Part shown: positions 1,855 through 59,200 of the stretch, one piece after another
How the letters are laid out: each line of letters opens with the position of its first letter
How positions within the stretch are numbered: the first letter of the stretch is position 1
From: Hydra vulgaris
Taxonomy: Eukaryota > Cnidaria > Hydrozoa > Anthoathecata > Hydridae
DNA: 64,000 bases
Assembly (NCBI RefSeq): GCF_038396675.1
Contig: NC_088931.1
Coordinates: 19,485,001-19,549,000, forward strand
Reading direction: 5' to 3'
Notes under the pieces: model-generated
Told to the model about the DNA's origin: nothing
The model's database searches: none
Seen by the model: the letters and a program-made list of their open reading frames with translations, nothing else
Program-made: the position numbers and the translations under genes

Positions 1855-1890
1855 ATCACTTTTTTCAGAGTATACTCTGAAAAAAGTGAT
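1855..1890. repeat. Perfect 36-bp palindrome
   Basis: Two 18-bp arms with no spacer, centred on GTATAC, are perfect reverse complements. No protein feature is associated with it. It is the first of the many short-spacer palindromes in the window. Confidence 0.85.
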
Positions 1891-2059
1891 GTAAAAAAAC
1901 TCTGTTGGGTTTTAAAGTGTTTTTCTCTCTTCCAAATTGTTCAACTTTGCATTGCTGTAACTTTTTAAATAGACAAAAATTTTAACTTTTTTTTTTTAAC
2001 TTAAACCTGCCAGCCATTTAAGTCTACAAAAATTAAGTTAAATTTTAAGTTCAAAACAT

Positions 2060-53200: not shown

Positions 53201-56200
53201 TATCCAATCCATGGCAAATGCCATATCTATGGCGGATCTTCGAATGACAGCCTTTCTATTTTAGACAAGGTGCAAAAAGGCATTGTAAACATAGTTGGAC
53301 CTGCTCTTGCAGCCAACGTCAAACCATTATCACATTGTCGTAATGTTGCTTCTCTTTCTCTTTCCTATAAATACTATAACGGGCACTGCTTTTAAGAGCT
53401 AGCGTCTCTTGTGCCATCTACTAAAACTCATTCTCGTATTACTCATCATTTAATTAAGCCCCCAAATAGTGGTTGCTTGCAGTCTTGTTGGAAGAGATGT
53501 TTAAAAAATATGCAAGTTTTGATGAAATAAGGTATTGATCTAAACAAGTGAAAATGTCAACTTAATTCTCTCTTGCAGTGATTTAAAAAATTTCTAAATT
53601 GTCATGGGATAAGCTCTTCTTCAGATTCAGCCAGATCAGAATTGTTTGATGTAAAATATGATATGACCAGGTCAGACTCTCTAGACATTTAACTTAATTC
53701 TCTAGACATCTTACTTAAATTCTCTCCTTTACTTTCAAGCACCCCTGAATATCTTCCTGAGCAATTAACTTTTAAATTTTTCTTACTTTTCCAAACCTGT
53801 GTCTACACCACTCATGAAATATTTTGTTTATGAACATTAGTCTGTAAGAAAACATTAACTTAAGCTAAAGTAGTATGAACTTTCTAAACCTGACATTTCA
53901 CTGCATCTTTCTGTTAATCATTTTCTTTCCTACCATAAAACAATATCATGCCTGTAGGCACAAAGCCCTGCCCTAAAAATATATTGTTACAGTTCACTAA
54001 AGAAATACATGCAGGATTTATATTCTGCATGTATTTCTTTGGTGAACCATAATATTTTTATGAGCTAGACAAGAGCTATATATTGCATGTATCTCTTTGG
54101 TGAATCATAACAATCTTTTTAAGGCAAAAATCTTGTCTAGTTCACCAGAGAGATACATGCAGGACATAGCTCTTTTCTACCTCATAAAAAAAACTAAACA
54201 ATGCTTAATTGTAATGTTTTTTTTCAAATTAAAAATTTGTATAAAAAAAACAATTTAATTTAATATTTTTCAAGCTGTTATTAACCCTATTACAGATTGC
54301 ATTTATGTAAACTTATCCTTTAAAATCATCTTTATTTGTTGAATTTATGTAAACACATCTTTTAAAATAATCTTTATGGATTGAATTTATGTAAACTTAT
54401 CCTTTGAAATCATCTTTATTTGTTGGATTTATGCAAACTCATCTTTTAAAATGATATTTATGGATTGGATTTACGTAAACTTATCTTGAAATTCTTTTTG
54501 TTCCTTTTTATTATAAAAACAAGATATTTAAGTTCAAAATAAACAAAAAAATATCTTATAAACAGCAACTAAATCACAAATGTACAAATAGCTTAAAAAA
54601 ATTCTCAGACAACATCATTTCTCAGAAAGCATCATTTCTTAGAAAGCATCATTTCTCAGAAAGCATCATTTCTCAAACAACATCATTTCTCAGACAACAT
54701 TATTTCTCAAACAACATCATTTCTCAGACAACATCATTTTTCAGACAACATCATTTCTCAGACAACATTATTTCTCAGACAATATCATTTCTCAGACAAC
54801 ATCATTTATAAGACAACATCATTTCTCAGAAAGCATCATTTCTCAAATAACGTTATTTCTCAGACAGCATCATTTCTCAGACAATATCATTTCTTAGACA
54901 ACATCAAACCAAAAATTCAAGGCTCTTATGACAGTACTAAATTTCAATTTTTAGTAATGTGAATCACTGTAATATGTTTTCAGTTCCAAAAAAGATCTAT
55001 CTAAAGATTCATTATTTTAGCCTGCATTCTGTCCTGTAGTTTCAAAAACGCTTAGAAATAGCCATAGAATCTATATTTTAAACCTGGATTTCCAAGTTAC
55101 ATATATGATAACGACTTTGTATTACTTATATGCATTTTCAAAAATAAACTTTAAACCTTTTTTTCAATGGAGTTCAAAAAACTTTGAACATTTTTTTAGC
55201 TACACTTCAAAGAACATATATTGCATGGAGAAATACTACATGGGCTCTAAGGGCTCATGAGTCTAATAAACATTAGACTCTAAACCCTGGAGCCTTATAT
55301 ATTTTCCTGTCTTTAATTCTAGTCGATTTAAATTTAAACAAATTATTTTGTATAAATTTATATAAATATATTTTAATGATATTCAAATTTTTAATAACCA
55401 CTACAAGCTATATATTTAATATATAAAAATTAATTTTTCAAGACTCAAGGAAAAGTTCTAAAAAACATAATGGATAAAGTAAAACAAACTTTGTGTTTTA
55501 CTAAAAATTGTAACTAAACTAAAAAAACCATAACTAAAATTAGTCGACTAATTTTAGTTATGGTTTTTTAGTTCAACTAAACTTAGTCGATTAACTTTTT
55601 GGTCTAACTAAAAATATTTTAAAACCTTTATGTAATAATTAAAAAAACATTAAATAATAAAACAATTTTAGTCGACTAACTTTAATTAGTCAACTAATTT
55701 TACTAAAAGAACTAAAGAGTTTGTCAACTAATTTTAATTTAATTATATCTAATGTTTACTCTCATCCCTACAAATTTTAACCAAAAACCAAATTACAACA
55801 GTTACCTTTCCACTAGAAACAATTCCTTTAACAATACTAACATATACAATAACCCAAGAAAGCACCAGACATCCAAACAACTTCCATTGAATTCCATTGC
55901 CAAGATCATTTATTGAAGGAGAAATATTTAATGCTTTATTGTAAAAATAATGCAATGGTGGATCATGCACACAACAATCAGGAAAGTTATCCTTGAGTAA
56001 GCAATAATCTGTTTTGTTTGCAGCACAAAGAATGGATATGTTTTTGTATTCTAGATACCTTAAATGTAAAAAATATATAATAAAATAACAAACAATGACA
56101 AAAAAGTAATTTAATTTATACTAAACCTTTTTTTTTAAACCTAGTTCTTATTTTTTTACCTAGTTTTACCTCACAATAAACGCTAACTTTTACAATGTTA

Positions 56201-59200
56201 ACATCCAACAGTAAACATACAAAAAGTAAAAATTTAATATAAAAATATTCAATAAAAAGGTAAAATTTATGAAACTACATATTGACAAATTACATCTTAA
56301 ACTACACGTTAACAAATTACACATTAAAAAAACAGTGTAAACATAAAATACTCAGTTCTTTTTATTTTCATTTCTGCGAATGTCTGTTTTTATTTAATTT
56401 TACAATGCAATTGTAGTTTAAAATAGAAAAATGGTAATGAATTATTAAAATATGTATGTTAACAATGACTAACACAGTGTAAAATAACAATTAATTTTGA
56501 AACCAAAATTCTAATGTATAATTGCGGTAAGGGACTTTAGGACTATGGGCTAAAAAACAATAGGTTCCAAGTCATTAAATGTCATAAATTTTTCCTTATG
56601 ACAAAGCATCAGTCACTTAACATTTTTAGAGCAGAGACCAAGAAAAAATAAAAATTTAAAATCAGAATTCTTTTTGAGACTTTACATCTCTGAACAAACA
56701 TAACAATAATTATTGTTTAACTAGTCAAAAAAATATATATATAATAAAGTCTTACCGAGGACAGTTTTCTAATCGCCATGGAAGTTTTGATGTTAATGAA
56801 ACAAAGAAGTAATAAAAGCACCATGTAATAACTACAATATAATATATGCATAAAAGAAATGAAGCAACAATACTAGATATGCCTATTCCCATGAGAGCAG
56901 GGTGAATCTTTTTCCAGCAACCCACAGCACTTTGTCTAAAACGTTGACCAATTGCAAACTCAATGTAAAATAAAGGAATTCCTTCAATTAGCATCATTAT
57001 AAAATATGGAATCAGAAAAGCTCCTAAAAAAAAGTAAATTTTTTTTTTAATCATTTTCATTATGAACATAAGTATATATAAGTAATTAAATTTATCAACG
57101 ATTTTTGTTTTCTACTTAGCATTGGCTTTAATGATATCAAATTTAACATTAAAATTTCTTTCTCTTTAATAACAAATAAATACAACATAATATCTAAAAA
57201 ATGTTGTGACAAACACTTTTTTTTGAACTAGTCATTAAATATGTGTTTTTGTATAGCTTTGTTCTAGGTATTGCGTAGAACAAAACTAATAAATTATAAG
57301 TATAAATTTATACTAACTTAGGAAGTACTACATTATATTATTTGTAATTAAACTTGTAAGTTAATATGCATAATAATGAGCATATTAACTTACCTTTTAT
57401 GCATATTACTTACAAATTTTATTATAATTTAGTTTTTGTTTAACTATTGTTTTAATTAGGTTGAGTGATTATTGTTTTAATTAGCAAATAAAACTTAAAC
57501 AAAAAACTGTTACAAAAATTTTAATTAGCTAAGTTATTAAAAAAAAAGTAATTGAGTATTTGAATTAAACAATTAACGTGAGGAAAATTAATTTGATTTT
57601 ATGAAAATAATATAAATAACATTTTATTTATGGCTCATTCCATGTCAGGTGGAGTAAAAGTGCTTTATGGACCATTCAGATTTTATCTGAAATGGTCATT
57701 CTCCATTACAAGGACTTACCATGCGATTTTGCAATAAAGTGCCAATCTGTAGTAATGTTGAAATCTTGTTTACGGTTGTTATGGTAGCATAACTTGTTTA
57801 TGATAGTCATAACTTGATAATATTTTTATATTGTGATTGACCTCCATCACTAAAATAGATATTATGTTCAAATAATGTAATTGTTTGAGTTTATCAATAG
57901 CATTATTGATAAAGGAATGAACAGCATCTGTTCCATGTTTCAGATGATCTGATATAACACAGTAGCCTTCTCTATCAAGTTTTTTTATTTTTTAGAAAAT
58001 AAGCAACAAGGGGTGCAAAGTTTCCTAGCTGTTATTCCAGTAGAAACCTTGCATTGCATCCTGTCATTAAAAATTATAATTTTCTGCAAAGTCTGGGAGT
58101 ACTAAATTTTTTTTTTTAAATTAGTTTTTAAATGTTGGATGTAGTTGGCTTGGCTTTTTGATATAAAATGATGCTCTTGTAAATTGCTGTAAACTGTTTA
58201 TAAACAATTTCAATAAAATCATCTTAAGGTAAAGTTGCTGGGGCTAAAGTACATTGGAGCTTTGATTTTTACTACTAATAAAAGTTAACTTCACTAATTC
58301 CATCATCATCAAAAAAAAATTGCCAATGTAATCAGCTAAAATCTCTTTTCGAGGACATTTATTACAGCTATGCTGCATACAATTTTTATTTCCAATGCTA
58401 CAAACCATTAATTTCAATAAGCTTTTGTAATCAGCTATTTCTGGAGTTTTTTGTATAAGAAGCTTTACATTTTGATGGCACTGACAAAAATAAAATGCAT
58501 GCAGACCAGAAGGACCACCTACCAAAAAAAACTTAAAACTTACTTTTCACTTTTCTTGCGTGCTTATTTAAAGGATTCATAGATGAGTTTTGGACTTAAT
58601 GAAAATCCTGGAAAATTATTTTAATAAAAAATCCGGAAAATCCCAGAAAATTATTTATTATTTTTTTATAATTCACCTCCCCAAGGCCGAGAAGGCCACT
58701 ACAGATGAGGAAGCTACTTGTGGTTATAACCCTCTCTCAACTCTATAACTCCGAAATACGAACCTTGATGAACAAGGCTGCTGCGCGGAAAAACAAGTTA
58801 AGCGCAGTACTACCAGGGATGTGGTGGGAACCGAACATGGAACCTCTTGCTTATGAAATTGACGATATGTGAGTAAATTTTGGAACATTGGTAAAGGGAT
58901 AAAAAAGTAACTTAACACTACCGAATAATTATGTTCCTCAAAAATTCTCTAAAATCAAACATAATATCTCAGTTTTATAATTTGTAAACAATCTGCAAAG
59001 CGTAAGAATTTATTTACTTTTTAAATATAAAATGTCAGACAATGGTTCAGAAATAAATACTTTTTATTCTTATAACTTTCTGCTGCAAAACATTCGTCAG
59101 CTTTTCTTTTACCGCACTTTATTGCATGATCAATAATAGATTCTTTAACTGTTTTGCGCCGTTCATGTGAGGCGATCTTTTTTTTCAGCATTGAATTTAT

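What the first reader, a model, noticed from the sequence alone, without database searches (positions are those of the whole stretch)
1855..57393. About 20 near-perfect short-spacer palindromes across the window
Inverted repeats with arms of 11-68 bp and loops of 0-15 nt occur at 1855, 5083, 7246, 8776, 16476, 18936, 19005, 26055, 29405, 31000, 31554, 33701, 41365, 44335, 44742, 45481, 47598, 47726, 49561, 53992, 55522 and 57357. The arm sequences are unrelated to each other, so this is not one MITE family. Many interrupt coding sequence of decayed transposons. AT richness explains short palindromes, but not 35-68 bp arms at this density. A process that repeatedly copies the local strand in reverse (template switching at stalled forks, or hairpin-end repair) would give this pattern. 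Chimeric reads or amplification artefacts are the main alternative.
Basis: partly seen in the sequence, partly recalled or inferred. Interest (0 to 1): 0.75.

Follow-up and report, generated by a model that had tools for sequence, protein, structure and literature searches.

The report
Hydra DNA hairpins from fold-back copying
A stretch of Hydra chromosome carries about 25 hairpin-shaped inverted repeats that look like old copying accidents, in which the cell briefly copied a strand backwards onto itself; such accidents are known elsewhere, but seem unusually dense here.

Summary
The palindromes are real. All 22 listed positions (18936 and 19005 are one nested cluster) are inverted repeats with short spacers. 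28 matches score >=14, against a mean of 0.05 in 40 dinucleotide shuffles and 1 in 56 kb of LINE-bearing control contigs. The window is Hydra DNA.

At six places in transposon coding remnants, one arm reads as old coding sequence; the other is an inverted copy of its neighbour, with coding resuming beyond it. Database proteins support five (one by length only); the sixth rests on reading frame. One of the six also lacks 143 codons. Target-site duplications equal chance, arms have diverged by 0-21%, and several places are chains of forward and backward copies. Perfect-arm spacers are 0-11 nt, with none at 16-30.

Best reading: hairpin-primed copying of a strand on itself, repeated over evolutionary time. 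The process is known; the density may be new, although long spacerless palindromes alone are no denser than a published human count. Unresolved: whether it is genome-wide, and fork or break. The genome tool did not answer in eight tries.

The parts
8776..8817 (+). Palindrome, 19-nt perfect arms, loop 4, in the endonuclease part of a LINE remnant; the stretch holding it has 7 more codons than four homologs
   Evidence: P0005, P0006, P0032, P0044; P0032 on both flanks
44742..44784 (-). Palindrome, 20-nt perfect arms, loop 3, in a hAT-like transposase remnant; coding runs up to it and resumes after it
   Evidence: P0126
30979..31276 (-). Multi-switch site in a LINE remnant: 77-nt perfect direct copy, 30-nt inverted copy (1 mismatch), 18-nt inverted copy (2 mismatches, palindrome 30994-31033), LINE coding continuing outside
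   Evidence: (P0045 residue 720 to 723; three other homologs skip 5-7 residues)
41365..41451 (-). Palindrome, 39-nt arms with 3 mismatches, loop 9, in a LINE remnant; 53-56 nt longer than four homologs there, arm plus loop = 48
   Evidence: near-flank alignment unconvincing
45480..45539 (-). Palindrome, 27-nt arms with 2 mismatches, loop 6, in the hAT-like remnant at a junction where 143 codons are missing; a further partial copy adjoins it
18935..19059 (-). Nested cluster in a Gypsy-like LTR element remnant: four copies of a 25-nt unit alternating in orientation; flanks share one reading frame, stops within the cluster
   Evidence: no homolog compared
44326..44407 (+). Triple: unit, inverted unit, unit again (44335, 44361, 44388)
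31548..31626 (-). Palindrome 31548-31602, 26-nt arms with 1 mismatch, loop 3, plus a further partial copy at 31610-31626, next to LINE reverse-transcriptase coding
   Evidence: one search finds no convincing homolog on the distal flank
16476..16616 (.). Longest palindrome, 68-nt arms with 2 mismatches, loop 5
29383..29503 (.). Palindrome, 60-nt arms 87% complementary, loop 1, about 48 nt upstream of the TTI2-like start codon
49554..49639 (.). Palindrome, 42-nt arms with 2 mismatches, loop 2
1848..1897 (.). Palindrome, 25-nt arms with 2 mismatches, loop 0
4459..4504 (.).
5083..5110 (.). Perfect palindrome, 14-nt arms, loop 0
7245..7293 (.). Palindrome, 23-nt arms, 1 mismatch, loop 3
12978..13060 (.). 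Older palindrome, 39-nt arms, 8 mismatches, loop 5 (not on the list)
26046..26102 (.). Palindrome, 26-nt arms, 2 mismatches, loop 5
33701..33734 (.). Perfect arms of 14 nt, loop 6
47127..47174 (.). Palindrome, 22-nt arms, 3 mismatches, loop 4 (not on the list)
47595..47649 (.). Palindrome, 20-nt arms, 2 mismatches, spacer 15
47726..47774 (.). Perfect arms of 19 nt, loop 11
52262..52304 (.). Palindrome, 19-nt arms, 2 mismatches, loop 5, within the SLC6 gene span (not on the list)
53987..54052 (.). Palindrome, 31-nt arms 87% complementary, loop 4, within the SLC6 gene span; part of a larger array to 54190
55522..55569 (.). Perfect palindrome, 24-nt arms, loop 0, within the SLC6 gene span
57356..57393 (.). 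Perfect arms of 14 nt, loop 10, within the SLC6 gene span

Best explanation
The palindromes are separate mutation scars in Hydra chromosomal DNA. Each arose when the 3' end of a DNA strand folded back on itself over a loop of a few nucleotides and was extended, copying roughly 13-68 nt of its own sequence in reverse complement. The end was then released and synthesis resumed on the original partner, at or near the point where it had left. The result is sequence, loop, inverted copy, then the old sequence again. Some places went through several rounds (forward, back, forward). Shown at the testable sites: the inverted copy, its local origin, and resumption of the old coding order. Inferred: that the template was the same strand (from the spacer sizes), and that the event happened mostly during replication (from the lack of large flanking loss at most tested sites). 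Fork versus break is roughly 55:45 in my estimate. The enzyme is unknown.
For: (1) Excess over shuffles, Markov sequences and control contigs. (2) Coding homologs on both sides. 8776: 7 extra codons against four LINE homologs. 44742: hAT-like coding runs to residue 163 of P0126 and is clear again by residue 166. 30979-31143: P0045 residue 720 is followed by 723 across 144 nt of mostly locally copied sequence; three other homologs skip 5-7 residues. 41365: 53-56 extra nt against four LINE homologs, arm plus loop being 48. 45480: collinear with 143 codons missing. 18935-19059: flanks share one frame. (3) Further local copies at 18935, 30979, 31548, 44326, 45480 and 53987. (4) 17 perfect-arm pairs have spacers of 0-11 nt, none 16-30; spacer 3 is commonest, 5 of 15. 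(5) Target-site duplications no longer than chance; GC 28% against 30% for the window. (6) Arm divergence runs from 0 to 21% among the 28 matches.
Against: Only 6 of 25 places could be tested on both flanks: 18935 by reading frame alone, and 41365 by length only (its near flanks gave no convincing alignment). No ancestral nucleotide sequence was available, so priming microhomology and exact switch points are not shown. At 8776 the remnant has other gaps nearby, and in separate flank alignments the upstream piece matched elsewhere for two of the three homologs listed (P0005, P0044). At 44742 the net extra length (29 nt, arithmetic) exceeds inverted arm plus loop (23 nt). Spacers of 0 (3 of 15) are not what a hairpin gives directly; they need a self-complementary loop or later trimming. 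Long spacerless palindromes are no denser here than in a published human count. One site has a large deletion, as expected for break repair.
Confidence: 0.75

Rival explanations
1. Break-repair variant: a resected double-strand break end snaps back, is extended by polymerase theta or delta, and is joined to the other end (snap-back end joining). The product is nearly the same as in the best explanation.
For: 45480 combines inverted copies with loss of 143 codons. The abstract of PMC11292364 reports stem-loop extension by Pol theta from two terminal base pairs. Passages of PMC11724301 report yeast foldback insertions at breaks, most about 5-34 bp and up to about 150 bp.
Against: At 8776, 44742, 30979 and 41365 no flanking loss above 7 residues was seen at the palindrome itself. 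The same paper says POLQ by itself mostly gives insertions up to about 30 nt; arms here reach 68.
Confidence: 0.35
2. Inter-strand template switch within a fork: the polymerase briefly copies the other parental or nascent strand, without a hairpin.
For: It gives the same inverted copies, and it explains the longer-spaced copies at 30979-31143 and the direct re-copying of 77 nt.
Against: Spacers should then spread over tens to hundreds of nt; 17 perfect-arm pairs lie at 0-15 and none at 16-30.
Confidence: 0.15
3. The palindromes are miniature fold-back transposons (MITEs), each of a different family.
For: Brown hydra genomes are over 60% repetitive (PMC12220107, passages). The 141-nt palindrome at 16476 and the four-armed array at 53974-54190 look element-like.
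Against: Target-site duplications equal chance at 25 places (mean 2.76 against 2.96 at random). Arms are unrelated within the window. At tested sites the arm is made of the host transposon's own coding sequence. Copy number in the genome could not be checked.
Confidence: 0.05
4. Sequencing or assembly artefact (chimeric fold-back reads).
For: No independent reads were available.
Against: At tested sites the sequence after the second arm returns to the original order rather than running on backwards. Many arms carry mismatches, i.e. they have aged. The window's TTI2-like protein was found on an 87-Mb contig, so the assembly is chromosome-scale.
Confidence: 0.03

Closest known systems
Short-range template-switch mutations (four-point model), great apes, PMC7954356
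   Same: Local reverse-complement copy with flanks kept; when the return point lies upstream, direct repeats are left; hairpins result (passages and one section).
   Different: There the median copied length is 12 nt in the gold-standard set, and 4017 events were found in six comparisons of ape genomes. Here 21 places in 64 kb have arms >=14 with at most 10% mismatch (my count).
Foldback inverted insertions at yeast double-strand breaks, PMC11724301
   Same: Inverted duplications of 2 to about 150 bp next to the template, by a hairpin primed at microhomology (passages).
   Different: Induced breaks, one hotspot with a 41-nt loop; here many unrelated places with mostly 0-11 nt spacers.
Template switching that creates RNA hairpins, PMC8794818
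   Same: One event can make a near-perfect stem (abstract and discussion).
   Different: That study looked at RNA genes; here the scars lie in decayed transposons and within gene spans.
Perfect inverted repeats across 118,019 genomes, PMC13155455
   Same: Same kind of object, counted genome-wide (passages, outline and one section).
   Different: Eukaryotic repeats there are mostly AT-rich and repetitive, predominantly with spacer 0; here 12 of 15 with arms >=14 have a spacer above 0.

Membership tests
Short-range template-switch mutation | One arm is a reverse-complement copy of adjacent sequence absent from relatives | tested here: met
   8776, 44742, 30979, 41365 (length only), 45480 against homologous proteins; 5 of 25 places
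Short-range template-switch mutation | Sequence resumes at or near the departure point | tested here: met
   No loss above 7 residues at 4 of 5 database-supported sites; 143 codons lost at 45480
Short-range template-switch mutation | Four switch points placed by comparison with a close ancestor's nucleotides | not testable with these tools
   No Hydra relative's DNA could be fetched (searches found none; the genome search did not complete)
Snap-back end joining (Pol theta or delta) | Terminal microhomology priming a hairpin, and an end-joining junction with some deletion | tested here: inconclusive
   Small loops fit; large deletion at 1 of 6 tested places; microhomology not testable
MITE / fold-back transposon | Target-site duplication | tested here: not met
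   25 places, mean equal to random placement
MITE / fold-back transposon | Many related copies in the genome | not testable with these tools
Chimeric-read artefact | After the loop the sequence continues as reverse complement of the upstream sequence | tested here: not met
   Old coding order resumes at the tested sites

The most novel reading that the evidence does not exclude
Hydra is a natural hyper-producer of fold-back copying mutations: its whole genome accumulates long, small-looped hairpins perhaps a hundred times faster, relative to base substitutions, than ape genomes. This would point to weak hairpin removal or a very active snap-back polymerase, and would make it an animal where new hairpins (and possibly hairpin RNAs) are born all the time.
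Probability: 0.35. Interest if true: 0.75.

Novelty: new member of a known kind. Interest (0 to 1): 0.5.

Why it matters
Template switching is known from bacteria, yeast and apes, where the ape events are mostly short. A genome where scars with arms up to 68 nt lie every 2-3 kb would let the process be studied in bulk: loop sizes, strand choice, chains of switches, decay with age. It could also supply raw material for new hairpin RNAs and be a steady source of gene breakage. [quoted passage not shown]

Tried and rejected
MITE hypothesis: tested by target-site duplication and arm relatedness; rejected for the set. Artefact: rejected on collinear flanks and aged arms. AT-richness: rejected by shuffles; the (TA)n tracts dominate the raw palindrome list and were masked afterwards. 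RNA families: no Rfam match at gathering threshold. Relatives' DNA: the viral collection was searched with a hAT-like protein (nothing) and a LINE protein (nothing confirmed). The genome collection gave seven LINE-bearing contigs, apparently animal or other eukaryotic DNA misplaced in bacterial bins, used as a control. That control is imperfect: whether each contig is wholly eukaryotic was not checked, and all seven are richer in GC than the window (30.5-37.5% against 29.5%).

Literature: Hydra-directed or general searches showed no paper on such palindromes or template switching in Hydra among the rows listed. The lists were capped: 15 of 359, 10 of 10, 12 of 96, 10 of 2,277, 2 of 2 and 12 of 2,375. 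The Hydra genome paper has no occurrence of words beginning 'inverted' or 'palindrom' in its main text. The idea that Hydra may handle hairpins poorly found no data. Passages of PMC4237412 gave no usable density.

The rate estimate: 21 places with arms >=14 and <=10% mismatch (counted, nested ones merged) in 63,171 bases (the masked length) give about one event per 150 substitutions per arm. The ape comparison uses 4017 events and a tree length and alignment size that I recall (about 2% and 2.8 Gb). It is good to an order of magnitude at best. On re-checking I added the human spacerless count, which shows no excess, and lowered the novel case from 0.40 to 0.35 for it.
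Full report
WHAT THE WINDOW IS. The window is animal DNA, almost certainly from Hydra. A 528-aa ORF at 27749-29335 (minus) matches P0001 at 100% over 98% of its length; P0001 bears Pfam PF10521 (TTI2 family; the name is recalled) and lies on a contig of 86.98 Mb. LINE and hAT-like relatives include proteins named [Hydra vulgaris] (P0044, P0130). Pieces of a sodium:neurotransmitter symporter gene (Pfam SNF, called SLC6 here from recall) lie on the minus strand between about 50.4 and 61.1 kb. 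Much of the rest is decayed LINE, Gypsy-like and hAT-like elements (the labels Gypsy-like and hAT-like are recalled). ARAGORN found no tRNA and Rfam no match at gathering threshold.

THE OBSERVATION. All 22 of 22 listed positions are inverted repeats with spacers of 0-15 nt. With microsatellites masked, 28 matches score at least 14; 40 dinucleotide shuffles give a mean of 0.05 and a maximum of 1. Merging three nested clusters leaves 24 places; with 30999 (score 13), 25 were carried forward. By the definition of PMC13155455 the window has 14.7 IR bp per kb outside dinucleotide repeats (25.2 with them), against 0.92 in shuffles of the masked window and 4.55 reported for Metazoa. That paper adds that without AT-rich repeats eukaryotes have the lowest density.

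TWO CONTROLS. A chance control came: seven contigs with LINE coding filed under bacterial assemblies, 56,398 bases, 30.5-37.5% GC. They hold 1 match at score 14 or more and none at 17 or more, against 28 and 21 in the window. I did not check whether every base of these contigs is eukaryotic. The second comparison goes the other way. By a like rule the masked window has 3, or 0.05 per kb, and shuffles 0. So the excess claimed here is mainly in palindromes with a small spacer, for which I found no human count.

WHERE THE SECOND ARM COMES FROM. Seven places lie in coding remnants where relatives or the frame could help.

(a) 8776-8817: four LINE proteins (P0005, P0006, P0032, P0044) align through, and the window has 7 extra codons in the stretch holding the palindrome. 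With the flanks aligned separately, P0032 fits on both sides; for P0005 and P0044 the upstream piece matched an earlier stretch instead, and the remnant has other gaps nearby.

(b) 44742-44784: P0126 aligns up to residue 163 on one side and is clearly back by residue 166 on the other (alignment from 162). The net extra is 29 nt by arithmetic; inverted arm plus loop is 23.

(c) 30979-31276: P0045 residue 720 is followed by 723, yet 144 nt lie between. Three other homologs skip 5 to 7 residues. The stretch is made mostly of a 30-nt inverted copy (1 mismatch), a 77-nt perfect direct copy and an 18-nt inverted copy (2 mismatches) of neighbouring LINE sequence.

(d) 41365-41451: LINE homologs align on both sides at a distance, and the window is 53-56 nt longer than four homologs there; arm plus loop is 48 nt. 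Alignment of the near flanks gave nothing convincing, so placement rests on length and on the open frame through one arm.

(e) 45480-45539: collinear, but 143 residues of P0129 are missing, and a further partial copy adjoins.

(f) 18935-19059: four copies of a 25-nt unit in alternating orientation. The flanks share one reading frame, and an RNase H-like domain follows. No homolog was compared.

(g) 31548-31602: only one flank has convincing homologs, so it is inconclusive.

The other 18 of 25 places were not tested against relatives.

WHAT THIS EXCLUDES. Chimeric fold-back reads would continue backwards after the loop; at the tested sites the old order resumes. Arm divergence covers 0 to 21% among the 28 matches, so the scars have different ages. 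Transposon insertion should leave target-site duplications: with 3-nt slack the mean is 2.76 at 25 places against 2.96 for random places, and without slack 0.68 against 0.62. The arms have nearly the GC of the window (28% against 30%) and are unrelated to each other apart from local extra copies. Two cases remain element-like: 16476-16616 (68-nt arms) and the array 53974-54190.

MECHANISM. A strand end that folds back and primes on itself gives sequence, small loop, inverted copy. Perfect-arm pairs show 17 with spacers of 0-15 (largest 11) and none at 16-30. Of seven at 31-250 nt, one is the outer arm of 16476, two belong to site 30979-31143, and four are separate pairs 136-176 nt apart. The commonest spacer is 3 (5 of 15), while 3 of 15 have spacer 0. 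Copying from the opposite strand of a fork would not set such a limit. This is the argument for a hairpin; it is inference, since no ancestral nucleotides were available. Chains of copies (18935, 30979, 31548, 44326, 45480) suggest repeated switching. At 30979 and 44326 sequence was copied again in the forward direction, which resembles the case of point 4 before point 1 in PMC7954356 (passages). Four of five database-supported places show no loss above 7 residues, which leans towards a replication event that returns to its template; 45480 leans towards break repair. Pol theta stem-loop extension (abstract) and yeast foldback insertion at breaks (passages) make the break route realistic. I put the two at roughly 55 to 45.

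HOW UNUSUAL. 21 places with arms of at least 14 and at most 10% mismatch correspond to about one event per 150 substitutions per arm. The ape study reports 4017 events in six comparisons. With tree length and alignment size recalled, not read, that is of the order of one per ten thousand or more substitutions. The comparison is loose: the ape filters are strict, arms may be re-copied and look younger, and this window was selected. The places are spread over the whole window (gap variation coefficient 0.80) and over several transposon types and gene spans, which speaks for a general property of the genome rather than a hotspot, but this is unproven.

NOVELTY. The kind of mutation is known. Six searches showed no paper on such palindromes or template switching in Hydra among the rows listed, which were capped. 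The Hydra genome paper does not contain words beginning 'inverted' or 'palindrom' in its main text. The library holds only open-licence papers. I file it as a new member of a known kind with a possibly remarkable density.

Noticed in passing
53974-54190: Four-armed nested array of inverted and direct copies (50-nt arms 88% complementary, 36 nt apart, plus more pairs) within the SLC6 gene span; could be an old fold-back element or a many-round copying site.
   Followed up: partly
1476-1655, 11460-11669, 21549-21728, 52508-52725: Four inverted pairs with 14-21 nt arms about 136-176 nt apart; total sizes of about 180-220 bp look like small terminal-inverted-repeat elements.
   Followed up: no
2074-3947, 8543-9307, 11275-12109, 24592-24927, 53198-53458, 62010-63999: Related degraded LINE copies (endonuclease and reverse transcriptase); the best, at 62010-63999, is about 77-87% identical in protein to database copies.
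   Followed up: partly
29383-29503: A 60-nt-arm hairpin begins about 48 nt upstream of the TTI2-like start codon; might affect its promoter or 5' leader.
   Followed up: no
L001-L007: LINE coding sequences inside contigs filed as bacterial genomes (Bathymodiolus symbionts and other bins): probable host or other eukaryotic DNA in the genome collection.
   Followed up: partly
15148-15239, 27444-27606, 43671-43754, 51004-51106, 61700-61873: Long (TA)n tracts, which dominate any raw palindrome count of this window.
   Followed up: yes
54597-54962 and 6585-6898: Two minisatellite-like arrays with open frames of repeating peptide motifs.
   Followed up: no
12417-12503 and 12547-12633: 87-nt direct repeat, 94% identical, 43 nt apart; short-range direct copying also occurs here.
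   Followed up: no
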